Origin: a virus
Direction: 5' to 3' (one strand)
Length of the DNA stretch: 47,508 bases
IMG/VR virus record: IMGVR_UViG_3300036760_001544
Location: 1 to 47,508 of that record
Both the position numbers and the translations under genes were made by a program. Shown here piece after piece: positions 1 to 47,508 of the stretch (positions within the stretch are counted from its first letter, which is position 1; each line of letters starts with the position of its first letter). Under the pieces are notes generated by a model, which worked only from the letters and a program-made list of their open reading frames with translations, made no database searches and was not told the origin of the DNA.

Positions 1-2778
1 GTGGAAGCAGAGGCTCAGTTCCAACCCGGCGAACGGATCACCCACCACGAATTCGGCCAAGGTGTCGTTCTTGACCCAGCGCGCGATGGCTACTTGCGCG
101 CCTTCTTCGGTGTGGGCGAGCGCCGTGTGCCGGTTGGCGCTGTGCGCCGCCAGCTCTCGCGCACCGAGCGCATCCTGCGTTCCGTCGATGGCGGCGCAGA
201 TCGGTCGCGCAAAGCGTGGTTGTCCTACGAGGCGCACGCGCTGCCCGTCATGGAAAGCGCATCGGCGTTGACCTCGGCCAAAATCGACCTGCTGCCACAT
301 CAGGTGGTGCTGACGCACCGCATTGCCACCGCATCTCCCCGGCGCTATCTGATTGCCGACGAGGTGGGCTTGGGCAAGACCATCGAAACCGCGCTGATCT
401 TGCGTGAGCTGGCCAGCCGGGGCGAGCTGAACCGCGCGCTGATGGTGGTGCCTGCCGGGCTGGTGAACAACTGGCACCGCGAGCTGAACGAGGTGTTCAA
501 TCTCGATTTCGAAGTGTTCGGCTCCGAGGGTGACATCACCGACCGCAAGACCAACGCTTTCGCCAAGCACGACCGGTTGATCGCCAGCATCGACACACTG
601 AAGCGCCCAGCACGTATCAAGCGCCTGCTCAATGCGCCGCGTTGGGATCTGGTGGTGTTCGACGAAGCCCACCATCTGACCGCCTACCGCACCGGCGGCA
701 AGGTCAGAAAGACCGAGAACTACAAGCTGGCCGAGGCGTTGAAGGATCACTCGCGTGACCTGATGCTGCTGTCGGCCACGCCGCACCAGGGCAACCACTT
801 CCAGTTCTGGATGCTGGCGCAGCTTTTGAACCCCACGCTGTTTGGCAGCCCCGAAGAGATGCTGGAGAACCGCCACCGGCTCAATACGGTGATGTTCCGC
901 CGCACCAAGGCCGATGCCTGCCAGCCTGATGGTTCGCCGCTTTTTGCGCGGCGCTGGGTGCATACCGAGTCTTTCCTGATGAATCAGGATGAGCGGCTGT
1001 TCTACGAGAAGCTGCGCGAGTATCTGGAGGATGGCTTCGATCTGGCACGTCGCCAGGGTGGCCAGGGGCGAGCCCTCGGATTCCTGATGGCGATCTTCCA
1101 GAAGATTGCCGCGTCGAGCTTCGCTGCCGTGCGGCGAACCATGAAACGCCGACTGCTGATGCTGACGCTGCACGAGGCTTTCCTGCGGGACAAAGACCTC
1201 GACATCGAGGGACGCGAGCGGCTGACAGACGAGGCTCGGGAGCTGATCCACGAGGAGTTCAAACTCGCACGCGATAGCATCGGGCGCAGCGAAGTAGATC
1301 GTGTGCTCGCCGACCTCAAGTACCGCTTGGTCAAAAAGCTGGATGAGGAGGCGCTGGAAATGGCTTCCGATCCTTACGGCAGCGAATATTCCGCAACGCA
1401 CGCCGAGGAGGCTGCGTCGGCTGTCGTGGAGCTCCATCTGCCCGAGGAGCGCCTGCGCATTGGCGATCTGCTCAAGGTCTTCCCGCAACAGCGGGAAACC
1501 AAGGCGCAGAAGCTGCTCGATGGCCTGGGCTATTTGTGGCGGCAGAATGCAAGCGAGAAGATCGTCATCTTCGCCACCTACCTCGGCACTGTCGATCTGA
1601 TTGCCCGCGAGATTGAGCAGGCCTACCCCGGCCAGGGTGTGGTGGTGCTGCGTGGCGGCGACCACGGTGCCAAGCTGGCGGCAGAGCGGAAATTCCGCTT
1701 GAAAGACGGGCCGCGTGTTCTGGTGTGTACAGCGGCTGGCCGCGAAGGCTTGAACCTGCAGTTCGCGCGCATCCTGTTCAATTTCGATTTACCGTGGAAT
1801 CCGATGGATGTCGAACAGCGTATCGGGCGTATCCACCGCTATGGACAGAATCACACGGCGCAGGTCTACAACCTCGTACTGTCCGACACCATCGAAGGGC
1901 GAATTTTCCTGATGCTCGACGAGAAGCTGACGGAAATTGCCAAGACGGTCGGCAAGGTTGACGATCAAGGCAACGTGGCCGAAGACCTGCGCGCGCAGAT
2001 TCTTGGCCAGCTATCCGAGCGTCTCAATTACGACCGCCTGTACCAGGAGGCGTTGTCCGACCCTGAATTGAAACGCACACAGGTGGAGTTGGAAGCGGCG
2101 CTCTCGAATTCACGCGAAGCGCGGCAGGTGGTGTTTGATCTGTTCCAAGATCTCGATGGCTTCAGCCTCGATGACTACAAGCCGTTCTCCGACGTGTCGT
2201 CCAGCCTGGATCGGCTGGTGCGTTTCCTGTCGGCAGCGGTTGCGGATCGTCAGCAGCGCTTGGTCAAGATCGACGACGAGACCTACGACCTCGTGACTGT
2301 TGATGGCGCACGTCGGGCACGATTTACTTTGAACCGTGATACCGCTACAAGCAGCGAAAACGTGGAATTGATGGGCCTGGATCATCCGCTGGTACAGGAA
2401 GAACTTGGTCGCTGGCGCAGCGTTCCGCCCGAGGATATTGGCATTGCGGTTTCAGGGGACGTAGACGCGCCAGTTCTACTTTCTCTCTGGATGGTTGAGG
2501 CGTCTGCTGGCAACGGCGAACGCCGTGTCGTAGTTCAACCCATTGCCGTCAAGCAGGATGGCACACGGGTTCCGGCGGTCGAGCGGCAGGCTGAGCAATA
2601 CCTGCAGGCACCAGTAGCGTCACCGAGGTTTGCGCCAGAGCAGCGGCAGGAACTATTCACGCATGTGGTTGAGCCGACACTGCAGCGGGAACTGAAGCAC
2701 AAGGGCGCAGCGAATGGGGATGGCAGCTATTCGGCGGAGCTGATTGGATACGTTGAGATCATGAACCAGGGGGCGTGA
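1..2778 (+). CDS. SNF2-family helicase, RapA/DrmD-like, probable defence helicase
   Basis: A 925-residue SF2/SNF2 double-stranded nucleic acid translocase. Residues 10-45 (PGERITHHEFGQG onward) look like the small Tudor-like module found in RapA and UvrD. The ATPase follows: motif I GLGKT at 123-127, motif II DEAH at 221-224, motif III SAT at 258-260, and motif VI QRIGRIHRYGQ near residue 605. The last 250 residues are helical and match nothing I know. RapA is about 970 residues, and the DISARM helicase DrmD is of the same general type, so both are reasonable relatives. The start is GTG at base 1, so its promoter lies outside the window. The next gene overlaps its stop (TGATG), so the two are co-translated. 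The pairing with a HEPN-like partner favours defence over RNA polymerase recycling; that role is inferred. Confidence 0.85.
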   Translation: MEAEAQFQPGERITHHEFGQGVVLDPARDGYLRAFFGVGERRVPVGAVRRQLSRTERILRSVDGGADRSRKAWLSYEAHALPVMESASALTSAKIDLLPHQVVLTHRIATASPRRYLIADEVGLGKTIETALILRELASRGELNRALMVVPAGLVNNWHRELNEVFNLDFEVFGSEGDITDRKTNAFAKHDRLIASIDTLKRPARIKRLLNAPRWDLVVFDEAHHLTAYRTGGKVRKTENYKLAEALKDHSRDLMLLSATPHQGNHFQFWMLAQLLNPTLFGSPEEMLENRHRLNTVMFRRTKADACQPDGSPLFARRWVHTESFLMNQDERLFYEKLREYLEDGFDLARRQGGQGRALGFLMAIFQKIAASSFAAVRRTMKRRLLMLTLHEAFLRDKDLDIEGRERLTDEARELIHEEFKLARDSIGRSEVDRVLADLKYRLVKKLDEEALEMASDPYGSEYSATHAEEAASAVVELHLPEERLRIGDLLKVFPQQRETKAQKLLDGLGYLWRQNASEKIVIFATYLGTVDLIAREIEQAYPGQGVVVLRGGDHGAKLAAERKFRLKDGPRVLVCTAAGREGLNLQFARILFNFDLPWNPMDVEQRIGRIHRYGQNHTAQVYNLVLSDTIEGRIFLMLDEKLTEIAKTVGKVDDQGNVAEDLRAQILGQLSERLNYDRLYQEALSDPELKRTQVELEAALSNSREARQVVFDLFQDLDGFSLDDYKPFSDVSSSLDRLVRFLSAAVADRQQRLVKIDDETYDLVTVDGARRARFTLNRDTATSSENVELMGLDHPLVQEELGRWRSVPPEDIGIAVSGDVDAPVLLSLWMVEASAGNGERRVVVQPIAVKQDGTRVPAVERQAEQYLQAPVASPRFAPEQRQELFTHVVEPTLQRELKHKGAANGDGSYSAELIGYVEIMNQGA

Positions 2779-4079
2779 TGTTGGACGAATACTCCATCGA
2801 GCAGCGCGCGACGCAGATTTTCGACGCGCGCAGCAAGGAATATTTTTCCGAGGTGTTGAGCTGCTACTCGGCAGGCAACCATCGGTCAGCGGTCGTAATG
2901 CTCTGGTCGGTCGTGGTCTGCGACCTGCTGTTCAAGCTCCAGCACTTGGTTGATCTCTACGGGGATGGCAAGGCCAAGAGCATTCTGGCCGAAATCGGAC
3001 AGATGCAGCAGGATAACGAGCGGTCACCGGTGTGGGAAACGAAGCTAGTGGAGTCGGTGGCCGAGCAGACTCAGTTACTGGACATCGCCGAACGTGAGAA
3101 TCTGCTCCATCTGCAACGGCAGCGCCATCTTGCGGCGCACCCGGTGGTCAACGCAAATTTTCAGTTGCATCGCCCGAACCGTGACACGGCCCGCGCGCTG
3201 ATTCGCAACGCACTCGACGGTCTGCTCACGAAGGCTCCGATCTTGTCGAAGCAGATTGTGGGTGATCTGGTCGAAGACCTTGAACAGGCATCTGGCATCC
3301 TGATCGATGACAAGAAATTGAAGGCGTACTTGGAGAGCAAGTATTTCTCGCGCTTCAATCCGGAGGTCGAAAGGGCTGTATTCAAAGCCCTCTGGAAATT
3401 CGTATTCCGGCTGACCGACGAAAAATGCGAGAAGAACCGCGCCATCAACTACAGCGCGCTGACCCTGCTCTATAGCCGCAACCCCGGCCAGTTTCGGGCG
3501 CAGATCGATGCCGACAAGGATTACTTCAGCACGATAGCTACGGGTGGCACGGCGCTGGTCTGCCTGATCCATTTTCTATCGCGTTCGGGTCCGATCTACG
3601 GGCTGCTGGCAGATCACGCCAAAACCGCGATTCAGCACATCGTCGACAACGACGTGTCGTCCCGATGCTTGGCGTGGTTCACGGCAGCGTCCTTGCCGGA
3701 GCACGCCGAAAGCCTGCGTGCGTGGATTGTTGGCGATGCGTCTCCGGAGGTCGGGCGCGAAACCTGGGATGCTTTGCGGGAAATATCGGACTCTCCGGAA
3801 TGGGAGAAAACCGTAGTGCGTCTTGCAAGCGCGTACTACGTGGCAAGCTCCAGCTACGATGGCGCGGACAAACGCTTCAATGAGGCAATCCGGCCTTTGC
3901 TTCCGAAATTTGATCTGGACGACTGCATCGAGCTGATTCGAGGCATCGAGCAAAATGGTCAAACGTGGGAGCGACGCGGGGCCTACAGAGACCACCGGGA
4001 GCTTCGTGCCCGCGCGCTGGAGATAAATCCGGCGGCTGATTTGACCGAATACCAGGTATTCAATCGTCACCTCGGCTGA
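2778..4079 (+). CDS. HEPN-like protein coupled to the helicase, putative RNase effector
   Basis: A 433-residue protein with no family I can name outright. The N-terminal 150 residues are all-helical and end in QRQRHLAAHPV, which contains R116-H117-x3-H121. This is the R-polar-x3-H (Rx4-6H) signature of HEPN ribonucleases, at the expected place in the last helices of the domain. Residues about 160-433 look like a helical repeat array. The ATG at 2778 overlaps the helicase stop; GTG at 2775 is an alternative start, and a G-rich ribosome-binding site at 2769-2773 serves either. HEPN proteins often act as toxins that cut RNA once a partner senses infection, so a helicase-sensor plus HEPN-effector arrangement is inferred. 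It could also be a structural HEPN or DUF4145-like adaptor without catalysis. Confidence 0.6.
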   Translation: MLDEYSIEQRATQIFDARSKEYFSEVLSCYSAGNHRSAVVMLWSVVVCDLLFKLQHLVDLYGDGKAKSILAEIGQMQQDNERSPVWETKLVESVAEQTQLLDIAERENLLHLQRQRHLAAHPVVNANFQLHRPNRDTARALIRNALDGLLTKAPILSKQIVGDLVEDLEQASGILIDDKKLKAYLESKYFSRFNPEVERAVFKALWKFVFRLTDEKCEKNRAINYSALTLLYSRNPGQFRAQIDADKDYFSTIATGGTALVCLIHFLSRSGPIYGLLADHAKTAIQHIVDNDVSSRCLAWFTAASLPEHAESLRAWIVGDASPEVGRETWDALREISDSPEWEKTVVRLASAYYVASSSYDGADKRFNEAIRPLLPKFDLDDCIELIRGIEQNGQTWERRGAYRDHRELRARALEINPAADLTEYQVFNRHLG

Positions 4080-41525: not shown

Positions 41526-42002
41526 CTAACCGAGTGACGCGATCAACCGGCGTTGCTCATCCCAGTCGAAGGGCACCTTGGCCCGCAGGATGGCTTCCAG
41601 CGACACTGCTCGTGGGAGTGTTCCTTCGTAGGCGGCCTGGATGATGTCCGGGGCGAGAAGCGCCAGCCGCAGCAGTTCGTTGATCGTGGAGCGGTGGACG
41701 CCTTCGCGCTCGGCGATTTCCATCGTTGAGGCCACCGCCTCGGTATCGAGTAGTTGCTGCCAGTAGATGCCGCGCCCCATCGCCTTGAGCAGGGGCTGAT
41801 CCTGCTCGGGGGTGAGTACGGGCGACGCGGTGACGGCAACCGGCTGGCTGACTCCGTCCGGGGCGACGATCACCTTCTTGATGCCCCGCTTCTTGAAGTG
41901 GAAAGGCACAAAAGTGGTGATCCGCACGCCGCCGCTGTCCAGTGGATGGCGGCGCTCGTGGGGCAACCCGTCACCAATCAGCTTTTTGGATGACCGATTC
42001 AC
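41526..42002 (-). CDS. KorB-like HTH protein of the recombinase cassette
   Basis: A 158-residue DNA-binding protein. Its C-terminal half (LLKAMGRGIYWQQLLDTEAVASTMEIAEREGVHRSTINELLRLALLAPDIIQAAYEGTLPRAVSLEAIL) is the helix-turn-helix seen in the partner protein that commonly follows DUF2924-type serine recombinases. GTG 42002 overlaps the recombinase stop (GTGA) with GAGGTGG upstream; the longer frame is a shadow of the recombinase. It may be the repressor or directionality factor, since no CI-like protein is visible. Confidence 0.72.
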   Translation of the reverse strand: MNRSSKKLIGDGLPHERRHPLDSGGVRITTFVPFHFKKRGIKKVIVAPDGVSQPVAVTASPVLTPEQDQPLLKAMGRGIYWQQLLDTEAVASTMEIAEREGVHRSTINELLRLALLAPDIIQAAYEGTLPRAVSLEAILRAKVPFDWDEQRRLIASLG

Positions 42003-43366
42003 GACGCCACCTCGATTTCCAACAGCTCGCCGCCGATGGTGTCCGGACTCAGTTCCCCTGCCAGCTCGCGCCATCCGGATTCGCGCCAGACGATGTCAAC
42101 GCCGTCGGAGAGCAACTGGACACGCTCGATCAGCAGATTGACCAGGCGCACCTGCTCGGCAGGGAACAGCTGCCGCCAGACGTCGCCGAGGCGGCGCATG
42201 GCCAAAACGGTGGTCGGTTCGTCGATCTCCGGGTATTTGTCGCAGACGGCATTCCAGACCCCTTGGATGCTCTCCGGTGACTGGAGCGCGCCCACCAGCA
42301 GGTTCACCACCACTTCCTCGATCTGGTCGGCCGGAATCATCCCGGTAGCGCTGCTGCGGTAGCCGTACCGCTTGTCCGCCTTGGGGATGTAGTAGCGGTA
42401 TTTCTTGCCCGAGGGTTTCTTGCTGTAGGTGATGTGGTACTTGCCGCCGTCAGGCCCGTACATCAACCCGCGCAGCAATGCATCGGTTTTGTGGCGAGTC
42501 TGGGTCTTGCCCATCCGCTCGTGCGCATCCTCGGCCAGGATGGCCTGCACCCGATCCCACAGTTGCCTGCTGATGATCGGCTCGTGCTGGCCCGCGAAAA
42601 CCGCGCCTTTGTGGCAGATCTCACCGACGTAGATCGGATTGCGCAGCAGCTTGGAGATGTACTTCTTGTCCATCGGCGTACCGTTACGCACGCCGCCGTT
42701 CTTCAAACGGTTGGGCTTGGTGGTGATGCCTTCGAGGGAGATTTCTCGGACGATGTCGGTGATAGAGCGCACCTCGGTGAATCGCGTAAAAATGCGCCTG
42801 ATGATCTCGGCGTCCTTTTCCTCGATGATGAGCTTGCGGTCTTTGACCTCGTAGCCCAGAGGCGTGTAGCCGCCCATCCACATGCCTTTGCGCTTGCTGG
42901 CCGCGATCTTGTCGCGGATGCGCTCGCCCGTGACCTCGCGCTCGAACTGGGCGAAGGACAGCAGGATGTTGAGCATCAGCCGCCCCATCGAGGTGGTGGT
43001 GTTGAACTGCTGCGTCACCGACACGAACGACACCTTGTGCCGTTCGAACACTTCCACCAGCTTGGCGAAGTCGGTCAGGCTGCGCGTCAGGCGGTCGATC
43101 TTGTAGACCACCACGATGTCGATCTGGTCGGCGGCGATGTCGGCCATCAGGCGCTTCAAGGCCGGGCGCTCCATGTTGCCGCCGGAGTAGCCGCCGTCGT
43201 CGTAGTCGTCGCCCACCGGCATCCAGCCCTCAGCGCGCTGGCTCACGATGTAGGCTTGGCCCGCCTCGCGCTGGGCATCGAGGGAGTTGAAGGACTGGTC
43301 GAGACGCTCGTCCGTGGAAACGCGTGTGTAGACGGCGCAGCGCTTTTTGGTCACGACGGCGTTCAT
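41999..43366 (-). CDS. Large serine recombinase (phage integrase)
   Basis: A 455-residue enzyme. The resolvase catalytic domain starts at residue 9 (RCAVYTRVST) with nucleophile S17, continues with DYDDGGYSGGNMERPALKRL and KIDRLTRSLTDFAKLVEVFE, and ends in the long E helix. Then comes the recombinase domain (PLGYEVKDRKLIIEEKDAEIIRRIF, YISKLLRNPIYVGEI). The zinc-ribbon region lacks the usual cysteine pairs. It integrates and excises the prophage by recombination between short att sites. I use ATG 43366 (MNAVVTKKRC), which has GAGGTG upstream and overlaps the DUF2924 stop by 4 bp. Confidence 0.92.
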   Translation of the reverse strand: MNAVVTKKRCAVYTRVSTDERLDQSFNSLDAQREAGQAYIVSQRAEGWMPVGDDYDDGGYSGGNMERPALKRLMADIAADQIDIVVVYKIDRLTRSLTDFAKLVEVFERHKVSFVSVTQQFNTTTSMGRLMLNILLSFAQFEREVTGERIRDKIAASKRKGMWMGGYTPLGYEVKDRKLIIEEKDAEIIRRIFTRFTEVRSITDIVREISLEGITTKPNRLKNGGVRNGTPMDKKYISKLLRNPIYVGEICHKGAVFAGQHEPIISRQLWDRVQAILAEDAHERMGKTQTRHKTDALLRGLMYGPDGGKYHITYSKKPSGKKYRYYIPKADKRYGYRSSATGMIPADQIEEVVVNLLVGALQSPESIQGVWNAVCDKYPEIDEPTTVLAMRRLGDVWRQLFPAEQVRLVNLLIERVQLLSDGVDIVWRESGWRELAGELSPDTIGGELLEIEVAS

Positions 43367-43824
43367 TTCGCACCTCGCTTCGATTTGCCCTTGATGATTC
43401 CGAAGAACAGCGGCCCAGACCATTGGGTGCCGGTGATGTGGCGGGCTACGGCGGACAGACTCTTGTAACGGCGGCCCTCGTACTCAAAGGTGCCATCGGC
43501 CTGCGCCGTCACGCGGTGCTCGCGACTGTCGAACTCGCGTACCAGCACCGTGCCAGGCACGACCTGGACCTCGACGCCGCGCTGCGTTTTGATGTTGGAT
43601 TGGGCTTCGCCGATTCGCGCCATCTGGGTCTGCACGGTCAGCTTGGTGCTCAGCGCTTCCTCCTGAATCTTGTAGGCGACGCGACCTTCGACGTAGGCGC
43701 GGTTGTTGTGTGGTGGGCGGCGCGGGAAATACTTGTCCCAAAGCGCCCACAGATCGTTCATGGCCAGCCTGGGCAGATTGGCAATTTGCGCCGCCAGGGA
43801 CGGGCCGGTTATCGGTATATTCAT
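43363..43824 (-). CDS. DUF2924 protein
   Basis: A 153-residue protein, MNIPITGPSLAAQIANLPRLAMNDLWALWDKYFPRRPPHNNRAYVEGRVAYKIQEEALS in part, then a basic beta-rich C-terminus (GTVLVREFDSREHRVTAQADGTFEYEGRRYKSLSAVARHITG). This is the DUF2924 family, which nearly always stands beside a serine recombinase. A role as recombination or expression partner is inferred. ATG 43824 overlaps the upstream gene's stop and has AAGGAG at 7 bases. Confidence 0.85.
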   Translation of the reverse strand: MNIPITGPSLAAQIANLPRLAMNDLWALWDKYFPRRPPHNNRAYVEGRVAYKIQEEALSTKLTVQTQMARIGEAQSNIKTQRGVEVQVVPGTVLVREFDSREHRVTAQADGTFEYEGRRYKSLSAVARHITGTQWSGPLFFGIIKGKSKRGAK

Positions 43825-44009
43825 TTGCAAACTCCTTCTGTAGAGGGGTTTGTATGAACGCGCTCGGGTGGCGAGAAGCCAAGTGGAATATCGCTGTCGC
43901 CAGGCCGGGTGGAATGCAGGCGGGCAATGGCGGCTGCGATGATTTCAGCGGCCTCACGCGCCCGCTGTCGTGGAGACATCAATTCAGGGAGAGTTTGTTC
44001 GACGGTCAT
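43821..44009 (-). CDS. Small leader protein of the recombinase cassette
   Basis: A 62-residue helical protein, MTVEQTLPELMSPRQRAREAAEIIAAAIARLHSTR and a polar tail. It overlaps the DUF2924 start (ATGA). The only in-frame ATG is at 44009; a TTG at 44117 would add 36 residues that do not look like protein. Similar small proteins precede DUF2924 in other elements. Function is unknown. Confidence 0.55.
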   Translation of the reverse strand: MTVEQTLPELMSPRQRAREAAEIIAAAIARLHSTRPGDSDIPLGFSPPERVHTNPSTEGVCK

Positions 44010-44281
44010 TTCGGCATCCAGTAAAGTAATCAGACCGTCACGAAGAATATGCGCGCAAGGCGGTCGGAGTATCCCGTTTGGGAGCGCATCAGCAGGGGTG
44101 AGCGAGATTGCGAACAAATTCTTGATGGCATTTCTGGTCGCCTTGGGCTTTGCCGAACAAGAGGCACGGGCCAGTCACACCGGTCTTTGGCACGACGTCG
44201 AGCCGGTTGCGCCATGGGACTGGCGGCGCACGTCTCGTCCGTAGTCGGTCGAGAGCGAATTTCTGACCGGGGTCGCCTCCA
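44010..44281. other. Probable right prophage boundary, gene-free
   Basis: A 272-base stretch between the recombinase cassette and the host promoter. The leftward cassette must have its promoter here, and the right attachment junction should be here as well. I see no convincing repeat shared with 4080-4102 and no coding frame that I trust. Confidence 0.4.
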
Positions 44282-44310
44282 TTGACCTGATGTTCATCAG
44301 GTCATATATT
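44282..44310 (+). promoter_or_regulatory. Strong sigma-70 promoter with palindromic operator
   Basis: TTGACC (44282-44287) and TATATT (44305-44310) are exactly 17 bp apart. A perfect palindrome GACCTGATGTTCATCAGGTC (44284-44303) covers the end of the -35 and the whole spacer. Transcription should begin near 44317, 19 bases before the ATG of the winged-helix gene. A dimer bound to the palindrome would block polymerase, and the winged-helix protein encoded next is the obvious candidate. Confidence 0.8.
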
Positions 44311-44335
44311 TACGCAATTGGCGAGGAGCAATGCC

Positions 44336-44569
44336 ATGAGCAAGCAAAAGACCGAAGGCATTACGGAGCCGCAGGCAAGAACGCTGAGAGCGATCTGCCA
44401 AATCCTCGATAGCACGGGCCTGCCGCCCACCGTCAAGGAACTGGCCGAGGCGCTAGGAATCAGCCACGCCAGCGCCCACGAACAGATCGCGCAGTTGGTA
44501 CGCAAGGGGTATTTGAGGAAAGAAGAAAAAAAGGCACGGAGCATCGTCATCGTGAAGCGCAACGAGTGA
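44336..44569 (+). CDS. Stand-alone LexA-type winged helix, probable autoregulator
   Basis: A 77-residue protein equal to a LexA DNA-binding domain without the peptidase: EPQARTLRAICQILDSTGLPPTVKELAEALGISHASAHEQIAQLVRKGYLRKEEKKARSIVI. The start is ATG 44336 with GAGGAG at 44323-44328; TTG 44318 is in frame but too close to the promoter. As it lacks the self-cleaving half, it cannot respond to RecA like LexA; relief of repression must come by another route. It heads the operon of the Met-Gly protein and the QueC-like enzyme and most likely represses it through the palindrome at 44284-44303. Confidence 0.85.
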   Translation: MSKQKTEGITEPQARTLRAICQILDSTGLPPTVKELAEALGISHASAHEQIAQLVRKGYLRKEEKKARSIVIVKRNE

Positions 44570-44603: not shown

Positions 44604-45392
44604 ATGGGGCATGTTCGGCTTGGGGTACTGCCAAGAACGAGGGCGTGGAAGGAGGTCGTCGGGCTAATCGCTGCCGGTGCCGACGTTTCTCAGATCGCCA
44701 ATGCCACCATCACTGCGGCGGAAAAGGCCTTTTCCTTCGTCATGAAGGATGTGGGCTACACCGAGGCTGTCTGGCTGATGACGCAGATGGCGATTGCCGC
44801 CAAGAAGCCCGACATCCAACAGCACCTCGCAGTGGCAGGTATCCATCTCCCCGGATACCCTTCGCTCATCGATGTGACCACGGCGATTACGGAGGCGCTG
44901 GATCGCCGCGTTGACAGCAACGGCCAACGATCTGACCTTGGGAGCCTCGCTAACCGGGCCATCGTCGGAGCCGTCAATGATGTTCTGTCGCCCAAACTCC
45001 ATTCACTGTTTTCTTCCGACCCGGACACGATGCGGGCCGCTCTCGCGGATTTGGGAAAGCCGAAGGAATTCGGCGAGTTTTCGCGGCGCTTTTTTGCACG
45101 GCTGGCCAACGAGGGGCTGCAGTATTTCCTGAGCAAGGTTGTCAATACGCAGATTGGCGACGGGATGCGGTTTGCGACGATGAATCAGTCGGCCCAGTTC
45201 AATGCGGCGTTGGAAACCCACACCCGGGAGGCATCGGTCATTGTCGAGAAATTTTCGAACGAGTGGTTTTCCAAGAACCGATTTCAGGAGGGCGGCGATA
45301 TCTCCAGAAAGACATCAGACAAGTTCGCGGGTTACGCGCTGAAAAAAATGAAGGACGAGTTGAAGGCGGGAGCGCGCAGCGATGCAAGATAA
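44604..45392 (+). CDS. Met-Gly protein, candidate substrate of the QueC-like enzyme
   Basis: A 262-residue protein of no family I can name. It starts M-G-HVRLGVLPRTRAWKEVVGLIAAGADVSQIANATITAAEKAF, so after methionine removal it exposes an N-terminal glycine. The rest is mainly helical, amphipathic and without membrane segments or catalytic motifs. The last bases overlap the QueC-like start by 11 bp, so the two are made together. QatB of the Qat system and the nucleotidyltransferase of type IV CBASS also sit beside QueC-like enzymes. It does not resemble QatB, which as I recall is Gly/Ser-rich at its start. A role as modified sensor or effector is inferred. Confidence 0.6.
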   Translation: MGHVRLGVLPRTRAWKEVVGLIAAGADVSQIANATITAAEKAFSFVMKDVGYTEAVWLMTQMAIAAKKPDIQQHLAVAGIHLPGYPSLIDVTTAITEALDRRVDSNGQRSDLGSLANRAIVGAVNDVLSPKLHSLFSSDPDTMRAALADLGKPKEFGEFSRRFFARLANEGLQYFLSKVVNTQIGDGMRFATMNQSAQFNAALETHTREASVIVEKFSNEWFSKNRFQEGGDISRKTSDKFAGYALKKMKDELKAGARSDAR

Positions 45393-47508
45393 GCGATACA
45401 TCCTTTGCGGCAACGCGTCCGCCAAAGGTATCAGCGAAGACCCGGTACGTGATCTGCGGCTGCGGCTTTCGGGTAAGGAAGGGAAAGGCAACATCACACT
45501 GCGCATCGAGGACGTACACAGGAAGATGTTCCAACCGGTACCTTCGCTGTTCAACGATCTGTTGGAGGTCGCCACCTACGTCTATAGCGCCGACCAGATC
45601 ATCAGGCGCGGTGCGGATGATGTCGATTCCTTCGGTGACGGCTGGCGGCGAGATCTGCACTTCGTCGTGCCCGTGCGTAACCCCGACTTCTGGAACAGCC
45701 CGCAGGTTCAGGAGGCGCTGTGCTCGACGCTCGGATTCCTGTCAGATGACCAGTACCGGTTCGACTTCGTTAAGCTCGACCAGGATCACCCATTCCAGGA
45801 GTACCTTGGGTTCGACGACACCCAGCAGATGTACCGCAAGCCTGAGCAGGTGGTGATGTTCTCCGGCGGACTGGACTCGCTGGCCGGTGCTATCGACGAG
45901 GTGGTGAACCAGAAGCGGCGCGTGCTCTTGGTGACGCACAAGGCCACCTCCAAGCTCAACAAGCGCTACCAAACCCTCGAGCAACTGCTGGCCGAGAAGG
46001 CCGATGGCAACGCGCCGCCTCGCATTAGCGTCCGGGTTCACAAGATCAAGGAGCTGAACCACGAATATACCCAGCGCAGCCGGTCATTCCTGTACGTCTC
46101 CATCGGCGCGACGATTGCCAGGATGCTGGGCTTGAGCAGCGTGCGCTTCTATGAAAATGGCGTAATCAGCTTGAACTTGCCGGTGTGCGCCCAAGTGGTC
46201 GGCGGCCGCGCCACGCGCACAACCCACCCCAGGGTGATGAAGGGCTTTCAGGACATCATCTCGCTGGTAGCGGGCGAGCCCTTCACGGTCGAGAACCCGT
46301 ATATCTGGAAAACCAAGGCCGACGTCGTCAAGGTCATCACGGATGCGGGCTGCCAAGACCTGATCAAGCATTCGATGACATGCACGCACACTTGGGAGAT
46401 GACGAACCAGCACACCCATTGCGGTGGTTGCTCGCAATGCATCGACCGTCGCTTCGCGGTTCTCGCAGCGAAGGCCGACCAGTACGATCCGGTGGAGCAG
46501 TACAAATTCGACGTATTCACTCAGAGCCGTGATGCGGAGGACAAGAAAAAGAACGTGGAGAAGATCATGGCGGCGGCCTATCTGGAGCGCGCCAACCAGG
46601 TTAAGAATCTGTCCGACGTGACGCAGTTCATCACCAGCTACCCCGACGTGGGACGCGTGTTCAAGTTCCTGGGCGGTGACACCGGACAGGCGGCGCAGCG
46701 GGTGTTCGATCTCTACAAGCGGCATGCCAACGAGGTGATGGGGGCGCTGGACGAGCTGCTCAGTCGACACAGCAAGGGGATTCGTGAGCGCACTCTGCCC
46801 GGCGACTGCCTGCTCCGGACGGCCTACGAGTCTGGATCGACGATCTCGATGTCGTCCGTCGTTTCGGTGGAGAAGCTACCGGAGAACTTCTTCCGCAAGC
46901 GCGGCGCGGTCTGGGAGACGCGATTCCAGGGCCGCAACACCATCCATCTGCTCAACGTCGACAAGGGCGCGGAATACATCAACCTCCTGTTGGCGTTTCC
47001 GGATCGGGAGACGTCGGTCTACGAGATTGTTTGCGGCCACGCATTGGGTTTTGGTGGAGAGGCAAATTCCGGGCTGGAGCACGACGAAATCGAGGAAGGC
47101 TTTCAGGTGACGACTGGAGCACCGCTGGGCGACGCTGGAGTGGTGGTGGACAGGAAGGCTTTAACCCAATACCAAGCCCGCTTCCAGCTGCTGGCCACAG
47201 AAAAGGCAGAAGCGGAGGAGGATGGTGATCACCAGCGCGTGCAGGAAATCGATGACGAGATGGCTCAAATTGCCGACGAGATTACCGGCGGTACCGGCAA
47301 AGGTGGAAAGCTACGCAAAGCAGGGGACAAGCGCAAGAACGTCCGCGATGCCTTCCGTAATGCCGTCAACCGCGCCATCAAACAAATCGAGAAGTACGAC
47401 AAACCGCTGGGGGAACACCTGAAGGCTAGCATTACGCACAGCAACGAGGTCGTCTACCGGCCCGGGATTCCCATTACATGGGACGTCCGGCCCATCGTGA
47501 ACTCGTAG
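45382..47508 (+). CDS. QueC-like ATP-pyrophosphatase with long C-terminal extension
   Basis: A 708-residue protein. Residues 1-150 are an N-terminal domain of the QatC sort (DLLEVATYVYSADQIIRRGADD; LHFVVPVRNPDFW). Residues 155-365 are the QueC-like fold: PP-loop SGGLDS at 161-166 and a zinc site C334-x12-C347-x2-C350-x2-C353 followed by DRRFAVLAA. QueC makes preQ0; its defence relatives instead attach the deazaguanine to a protein. The C-terminal 340 residues are extra: a globular part, a coiled coil near 594-635 and a last module (655-705, GEHLKAS then YRPGIPITW) that I remember from other bacterial sensor proteins. It ends at the last base of the window. There are no queD, queE or tgt genes nearby. 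Confidence 0.85.
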   Translation: MQDKRYILCGNASAKGISEDPVRDLRLRLSGKEGKGNITLRIEDVHRKMFQPVPSLFNDLLEVATYVYSADQIIRRGADDVDSFGDGWRRDLHFVVPVRNPDFWNSPQVQEALCSTLGFLSDDQYRFDFVKLDQDHPFQEYLGFDDTQQMYRKPEQVVMFSGGLDSLAGAIDEVVNQKRRVLLVTHKATSKLNKRYQTLEQLLAEKADGNAPPRISVRVHKIKELNHEYTQRSRSFLYVSIGATIARMLGLSSVRFYENGVISLNLPVCAQVVGGRATRTTHPRVMKGFQDIISLVAGEPFTVENPYIWKTKADVVKVITDAGCQDLIKHSMTCTHTWEMTNQHTHCGGCSQCIDRRFAVLAAKADQYDPVEQYKFDVFTQSRDAEDKKKNVEKIMAAAYLERANQVKNLSDVTQFITSYPDVGRVFKFLGGDTGQAAQRVFDLYKRHANEVMGALDELLSRHSKGIRERTLPGDCLLRTAYESGSTISMSSVVSVEKLPENFFRKRGAVWETRFQGRNTIHLLNVDKGAEYINLLLAFPDRETSVYEIVCGHALGFGGEANSGLEHDEIEEGFQVTTGAPLGDAGVVVDRKALTQYQARFQLLATEKAEAEEDGDHQRVQEIDDEMAQIADEITGGTGKGGKLRKAGDKRKNVRDAFRNAVNRAIKQIEKYDKPLGEHLKASITHSNEVVYRPGIPITWDVRPIVNS

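What the first reader, a model, noticed from the sequence alone, without database searches (positions are those of the whole stretch)
44282..44338. Operator palindrome embedded in a near-consensus promoter of the QueC operon
TTGACC-17-TATATT encloses a perfect 20-bp palindrome, and the first gene encodes a LexA-type winged helix without a peptidase domain. This is a compact, self-repressing switch in front of a probable defence operon, like the WYL, CapW or Cro-type controls of other systems but with a LexA-like domain. Release cannot be by RecA-driven self-cleavage.
Basis: partly seen in the sequence, partly recalled or inferred. Interest (0 to 1): 0.65.

Follow-up and report, generated by a model that had tools for sequence, protein, structure and literature searches.

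The report
LexA-like autorepressor switch of prophage QatBC
A prophage carries a two-protein anti-phage system (QatB and QatC type) behind a promoter whose core is a DNA palindrome kept nearly unchanged across distant bacteria, almost certainly the docking site of the small LexA-like repressor made by the first gene of the same operon.

Summary
The palindrome and promoter are real. TTGACC-17-TATATT lies at 44282-44310, and a 10+2+10 bp palindrome (44283-44304) fills the -35 box and the whole spacer. By itself such a palindrome is unremarkable (2 in the window, 0.53 expected in shuffles). Its conservation is what counts. In 22 lineages with unlike flanks, up to Desulfosarcina, the site is kept (0.955 against 0.456 for flank columns). 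A collection-wide search finds it almost only in front of this 77-aa gene: 29 of 30 viral contigs, and one site per genome. The only exception that keeps the gene is a recombinant whose gene start is also replaced. The gene encodes a stand-alone LexA-type winged helix with no S24 peptidase. Gene 2 has the QatB fold and an invariant N-terminal MGH; gene 3 is a long QatC. So the operon is a QatBC-only relative of qatABCD, at the right end of a serine-recombinase prophage. Best reading: a one-component autorepressor, working like RptR or CapW but with another fold. Binding, repression and release are inferred, not shown. The novelty is moderate: a new variant of a known kind, and the first candidate switch for a Qat-type system that I know of.

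The parts
44282..44287 (+). -35 hexamer TTGACC of the operon promoter
   Evidence: 100% identical in 22 diverged lineages
44283..44304 (.). Operator palindrome TGACCTGATG-TT-CATCAGGTCA (core GACCTGA-N6-TCAGGTC)
   Evidence: found almost only upstream of this gene
44305..44310 (+). -10 hexamer TATATT, 17 bp from the -35
   Evidence: conserved in relatives
44323..44328 (+). Probable ribosome-binding site GAGGAG of gene 1
   Evidence: sequence
44336..44569 (+). Gene 1: 77-aa stand-alone LexA-type winged helix, candidate autorepressor
   Evidence: PF01726 E 2.4e-14; TIGR00498 LexA far below its cut-off; recognition helix ISHASAHEQ invariant in 22 lineages
44604..45392 (+). Gene 2: 262-aa QatB-like helical protein, N-terminus MGHVRLGVLPRTRAW
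   Evidence: fold match to QatB 9y02_A, Z 12.4 over 206 residues; MGHxRLG kept in a 23%-identical Leptospira relative
45382..47508 (+). Gene 3: 708-aa QatC-like QueC-family enzyme with a C-terminal extension of about 300 aa
   Evidence: PADLOC QatC 2.2e-59; NF041925 224 bits, cut-off 280; solved QatC 9vlk 3.4e-32; SGGLDS and Cys motifs invariant
41999..43423 (-). Serine recombinase (phage integrase type), divergent neighbour conserved with the operon
43363..43830 (-). DUF2924 protein, neighbour
43821..44117 (-). 98-aa protein without family, neighbour

Best explanation
The palindrome is the operator of the 77-aa LexA-type winged-helix protein made by the first gene. Two copies of the protein, one per half-site GACCTGA, would sit on the -35 box and the spacer and keep RNA polymerase off, so the protein represses its own operon and with it the QatB-like and QatC-like defence genes. 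The circuit would set a low, self-limiting level of a potentially costly defence protein in the lysogen and give a burst when the prophage enters a cell that has no repressor. Shown here: anatomy, domains, conservation and exclusive linkage. Inferred: DNA binding, dimerisation on DNA, repression, and the trigger (if any) that relieves it. RecA-dependent self-cleavage is not possible for this protein because it has no S24 domain.
For: Domain: LexA DNA-binding domain only. Footprint: site columns 0.955 against flank 0.456 in 22 lineages; the left nine bases and all core arm positions are invariant. Specificity: 29 of 30 IMG/VR contigs with the exact pattern have it in front of gene 1, and the other has neither promoter nor gene; 3 of 369 gammaproteobacterial genomes have the 16-base pattern: G143 has it in front of gene 1, and G001 and G007 are the genomes of loci L043 and L041, where it lies in front of gene 1. 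One site per host genome among the six that match exactly. In a profile search of 274 genomes the short gene occurs only in two genomes that also have the site; the other 27 hits sit in open frames of at least 147 codons, nearly all of full LexA length. Desulfobacterota-type relatives with unlike surroundings (recombinase about 46%, DUF2924 about 34% identical) keep the site. Arms show no compensatory changes, as expected of a DNA site read by a protein. The -35 and spacer position implies repression.
Against: No binding or expression data. An isolated LexA DNA-binding domain binds DNA weakly without a dimerisation domain (my own knowledge), and no dimer could be modelled here. One chimeric locus (L022/L148) keeps most of the gene without the site. 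No distant homologue with a different recognition helix and a matching different operator was found, so a covariation test of helix against half-site could not be made.
Confidence: 0.85

Rival explanations
1. The palindrome is a host LexA (SOS) box, so the operon is an SOS gene of the host.
For: CTG...CAG triplets occur in the arms and the neighbouring gene has a LexA-like fold.
Against: The triplets are 8 bp apart here, against 10 in the E. coli box CTGT-N8-ACAG (own knowledge). The site is the same in hosts from different phyla, and there is one per genome rather than a regulon.
Confidence: 0.03
2. It is a stem-loop RNA or intrinsic terminator for the nuclease gene that lies upstream in some relatives.
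For: The pattern scan lists it as terminator-like; an SNase gene precedes it in L041.
Against: The following bases (TATATTTACG) are a -10 box, not a T-run. Arm bases are fixed and never compensated, and outer pairs are broken in several lineages. The promoter hexamers overlap it exactly.
Confidence: 0.04
3. It is a recombination or crossover site of the neighbouring serine recombinase.
For: The recombinase gene lies about 0.9 kb away and is conserved with the operon.
Against: Both sides of the site belong to the same conserved element in nearly all lineages with long enough contigs, so it is not a junction. The nearest visible end of the element is a tRNA-Ala or tmRNA gene behind QatC. The site keeps its place relative to the gene 1 start, not to the recombinase.
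Confidence: 0.04
4. Gene 1 binds the site but activates, or the main control is by another protein, gene 1 being only a modulator.
For: No functional data; in the beta- and gammaproteobacterial group a second conserved box GGTCGCCTCC lies just upstream of the -35.
Against: The operator covers the -35 box and spacer of a near-consensus promoter, where binding of an ordinary dimer blocks polymerase. The upstream box is absent in the Desulfobacterota-like lineages and L145, while the palindrome stays.
Confidence: 0.08

Closest known systems
RptR, repressor of a type I restriction-modification defence island (PMC12255303)
   Same: Small one-component protein without a sensor domain, first gene of a defence operon, represses its own promoter through palindromes about 31-58 bp upstream of the start codon; protein and site conserved across genomes
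   Different: Different fold (all-helical, bZIP-like reading of one groove); the site is repeats of TAGCTA over the -10, not one long palindrome over the -35 and spacer; another defence system
BrxR and CapW (WYL-domain winged-helix repressors of BREX and CBASS; PMC9122601, PMC9122588)
   Same: Winged-helix protein encoded at the start of a defence operon; BrxR binds an inverted repeat in its promoter region
   Different: They carry a WYL ligand domain; gene 1 has none
CapS with kinase CapK (PMC13373217)
   Same: Winged-helix autorepressor of adjacent immune operons on palindromes
   Different: CapS has a STAS domain and is released by phosphorylation after DNA damage; no kinase gene or STAS domain here
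LexA
   Same: Same DNA-binding domain family (PF01726)
   Different: No S24 peptidase or dimerisation domain, a different operator, no regulon
Short LexA-domain phage regulators (phrog_362 'transcriptional repressor', e.g. phage mEp390 gp43, 106 aa)
   Same: LexA-type domain without a peptidase, in temperate phages
   Different: Lie among replication genes next to rusA, about 40% identical, not linked to a defence operon
qatABCD (PMC13279940)
   Same: Genes 2 and 3 match QatB (fold, N-terminal Gly, Pro and Trp) and QatC (ATP loop, Thr pair, Zn cysteines); QatBC alone can defend in the published system
   Different: No QatA or QatD; QatC is about 250 aa longer; QatB has no long disordered tail and starts MGHVRLG, not MGTS; has its own repressor and operator

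Membership tests
LexA (SOS repressor) | N-terminal LexA DNA-binding winged helix | tested here: met
   PF01726, E 2.4e-14, residues 7-68
LexA (SOS repressor) | C-terminal S24 self-cleaving, dimerising domain | tested here: not met
   77 aa in all; no peptidase family; TIGR00498 49.8 bits against cut-off 110.95
Qat system (qatABCD) | QatC: QueC-family enzyme with SGGxDS loop, Thr pair in place of Tyr/Asp, four Zn cysteines | tested here: met
   SGGLDS 161-166, T278/T280, C334/C347/C350/C353 invariant in 15 sequences; aligned with 9vlk QatC
Qat system (qatABCD) | QatC reaches the NCBIfam NF041925 cut-off | tested here: not met
   224.3 bits, cut-off 280
Qat system (qatABCD) | QatB partner: helical domain plus N-terminal glycine motif | tested here: met
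   9y02_A Z 12.4, rmsd 4.8, 206 aligned; next unrelated row Z 5.8. Foldseek alone did not list it among its top 50. G2, P10, W15 invariant
Qat system (qatABCD) | QatB N-terminal MGTS motif on a tail of 30-90 residues | tested here: not met
   N-terminus MGHVRLG in nearly all; first predicted helix at residue 13
Qat system (qatABCD) | qatA (KAP NTPase) and qatD (TatD nuclease) in the operon | tested here: not met
   No such gene among the ORFs around the operon; in L028, the near-identical locus, QatC is followed about 260 bp on by tRNA-Ala with no ORF of 120 aa or more starting on the + strand
WYL repressors (BrxR, CapW) | WYL domain | tested here: not met
   No WYL match in Pfam or PADLOC
RptR | TAGCTA repeats in the promoter | tested here: not met
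   Absent from 44260-44335
Self-binding repressor | Protein binds the palindrome and lowers transcription | not testable with these tools
   Needs gel shift and reporter

The most novel reading that the evidence does not exclude
The switch is inducible without RecA: during infection a phage factor, or QatB/QatC or a cargo protein, takes the LexA-type protein off the operator, so that a QatBC module and whatever gene is plugged in behind it are switched on only when needed. This would be a stand-alone LexA-domain control module for interchangeable defence cargo, carried by prophages across phyla.
Probability: 0.15. Interest if true: 0.75.

Novelty: new variant of a known kind. Interest (0 to 1): 0.5.

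Why it matters
How Qat-type systems are controlled appears not to have been described: the two QueC-family papers I searched never mention LexA, and the qatABCD structure paper holds no mention of a promoter, repressor or transcription. This gives a concrete operator (GACCTGA-N6-TCAGGTC) and a 77-aa protein that can be tested with a simple gel shift. It also shows that QatB and QatC travel alone as a compact pair on prophages, in line with the finding that QatBC is the minimal defence unit (PMC13279940), with variable partner genes behind them in relatives.

Tried and rejected
Palindrome as a chance feature: rejected on conservation, although its raw chance expectation is not small. Host LexA box, terminator, recombination site: see rivals. 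Covariation of recognition helix and operator in distant homologues: a search with phrog_3502 and with the gene 1 profile gave almost only full-length LexA, and a weak phage hit (MT835640) turned out to be a full LexA, so no test was possible. AlphaFold2 model of QatC was poor (pLDDT 53) and was not used. A tRNA-derived att repeat on the far side of the L041 prophage was not found in 60 kb; the ends of the element were not mapped. Foldseek alone gave no significant match for gene 2.

Full report
What is there. At 44282-44310 of the window lies TTGACC-17-TATATT, ten of twelve consensus positions. From 44283 to 44304 runs TGACCTGATG-TT-CATCAGGTCA: two perfect 10-bp arms around a two-base centre. 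The left arm uses five of the six -35 bases and the right arm ends at the base before the -10 box, so the palindrome occupies the -35 box and the whole spacer. Gene 1 starts at 44336 behind GAGGAG and encodes 77 residues, then come gene 2 (44604-45392) and gene 3 (45382-47508), the last two overlapping by 11 bases.

Is it more than chance? Palindromes of this kind occur twice in the window and 0.53 are expected in shuffles, so the palindrome alone would not convince. Relatives do. I fetched loci with gene 3 in IMG/VR and GTDB genomes, with the palindrome and with gene 1. Of 118 fetched loci with gene 1 (over 65% identity; some are duplicates of the same contig), 116 have the site; they hold 38 distinct upstream sequences. 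After reduction to 22 lineages whose left flanks are under 85% identical, the mean majority frequency is 0.955 over the 29-bp site, 0.456 over the distal upstream flank and 0.56 just downstream. TTGACCTGA and TCAGG are identical in all 22. The lineages reach Desulfosarcina alkanivorans (L052) and its IMG/VR relatives, where the recombinase is only about 46% and DUF2924 about 34% identical and the leader is some 30 bases longer, yet TTGACCTGAT-N4-ATCAGGTC-G-TATATT stands. The one exception that keeps the gene is a contig (L022, L148) in which the first residues of gene 1 and everything upstream are replaced. L051 has lost gene 1 and broken gene 2, and L034 has lost both.

Specificity. In IMG/VR the exact 18-base pattern is found in 30 contigs; 29 have it in front of gene 1, and the remaining one (L056) has neither gene nor promoter. 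In 369 gammaproteobacterial genomes a 16-base version is found in three: G143, where it stands in front of gene 1, and G001 and G007, the genomes of L043 and L041, where it does too. The six host genomes that match hold exactly one site each. In 274 genomes searched with the gene 1 profile, only two (G001, G143), both with the palindrome, have the short protein; the other 27 hits lie in open frames of at least 147 codons, nearly all of full LexA length. Protein and site therefore travel together.

DNA site, not RNA. Per pair of the palindrome, six arm positions never vary; the outermost pair is broken in three of 22 lineages and the third in two, always on the right side, where the left side is held by the -35 box. 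No pair of the nine outer arm positions is ever compensated. That is the pattern of a site read as DNA. Gene 1 is under purifying selection: 37 codons have an invariant residue and 36 of these vary synonymously; the helix-turn-helix stretch ISHASAHEQ is invariant.

What the proteins are. Gene 1 is a LexA-type DNA-binding domain (PF01726 2.4e-14) with no peptidase. Gene 3 is QatC: PADLOC QatC 2.2e-59, solved QatC chains at 3.4e-32 and 1.7e-25, with the ATP loop SGGLDS, the Thr pair and the four cysteines invariant. It is below the NCBIfam QatC cut-off (224 against 280 bits) and has about 300 extra C-terminal residues of unknown kind. Gene 2 has no family match, but its AlphaFold2 model (pLDDT 75, ten helices) aligns with the crystal structures of QatB at Z 12.4 and 11.4 over 206-209 residues, while the next unrelated chain has Z 5.8. 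Caution: the aligner's own note warns that helical bundles can reach Z 13 by common arrangement, and Foldseek alone did not rank QatB in its top 50. The N-terminus supports the match: residues MGH.RLG.LP.TR.W are shared with a 23%-identical relative next to a QatC-like gene on a Leptospira noguchii plasmid, and G2, P10 and W15 are invariant in the alignment. In QatB of Pseudomonas aeruginosa a glycine at position 2 is essential, and Pro16 and Trp18 are conserved in a stretch whose deletion abolishes defence; QatBC alone defends against some phages (PMC13279940).

Setting. The window is a temperate phage: gpA terminase, lambda-type portal, capsid E, tail and lysozyme genes, with a serine recombinase next to the operon. 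In a near-identical locus (L028) the operon ends with QatC and a tRNA-Ala gene follows about 260 bases later. In relatives a tRNA-Ala(CGC) or tmRNA gene likewise marks the end. Some relatives have further genes plugged in behind QatC in the same direction, within about 15-100 bases: a helicase (L035), an Avs1-like protein (L050, L004), a PtuA/PtuB-like pair (L042), and small proteins of 173-275 aa. The promoter may therefore drive interchangeable defence cargo.

Mechanism. Most likely gene 1 dimerises on the palindrome and blocks polymerase from the -35 box, repressing itself and QatBC. Shown: anatomy, conservation, exclusive linkage, domain content. Inferred: binding, repression, dimer on DNA. 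Release: self-cleavage is excluded by the missing domain; there is no WYL, STAS or kinase partner either. The simplest view is homeostasis plus a burst on entry into a new cell; infection-triggered release is not excluded.

Known or new. Small autorepressors in front of defence operons are known: RptR (PMC12255303), BrxR (PMC9122601), CapW (PMC9122588) and CapS (PMC13373217). RptR is the nearest in design, a sensor-free protein whose own palindromes lie 31-58 bases before its start codon. What is new is the fold (LexA domain alone), a single long operator of this sequence, and control of a QatBC pair. Neither QueC-family paper mentions LexA, and the qatABCD paper has no mention of promoter, repressor or transcription. 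I file it as a new variant of a known kind.

Noticed in passing
window 1-4079: Left end of the same prophage carries a BrxH/HmaA-like SNF2 helicase (1-2778) and a PD-T7-3 defence protein (2775-4079, PADLOC 1.7e-164): a second defence cargo site opposite the QatBC end.
   Followed up: partly
L035:9130-12093, L050:9206-15253, L042:9217-11609, L016, L020, L030: Different genes stand directly behind QatC in relatives (helicase, Avs1-like, PtuA/PtuB-like, small unknown proteins), as if the QatBC operon were a socket for extra cargo.
   Followed up: partly
L028:9386-9461, L041, L033, L050, L051: The element ends at a tRNA-Ala(CGC) or tmRNA gene a few hundred bases behind QatC or the cargo; no long att repeat was found on the other side of L041, which fits a serine integrase.
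   Followed up: partly
L041:5138-5860; remnant in window about 44080-44250: Relatives have a staphylococcal-nuclease-like gene with what looks like a signal peptide between the 98-aa gene and the promoter; in the window it seems mostly deleted.
   Followed up: partly
window 44270-44281: GGTCGCCTCC just upstream of the -35 is conserved (0.8-0.9) in the beta- and gammaproteobacterial group but absent in the Desulfobacterota-like group and L145; a second regulatory site is possible.
   Followed up: no
L153:5207-7851: Leptospira noguchii plasmid p1 has a two-gene relative (MGHERLG... protein and a 621-aa QatC-like protein) without gene 1, directly behind an IS982 element.
   Followed up: partly
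window 46600-47508: C-terminal extension of about 300 residues in this QatC group has no family match and no usable model.
   Followed up: no
L052, L146, L149, L151 upstream of gene 1: Desulfobacterota-like relatives share a leader about 30 bases longer between the -10 and gene 1 that is itself conserved.
   Followed up: no
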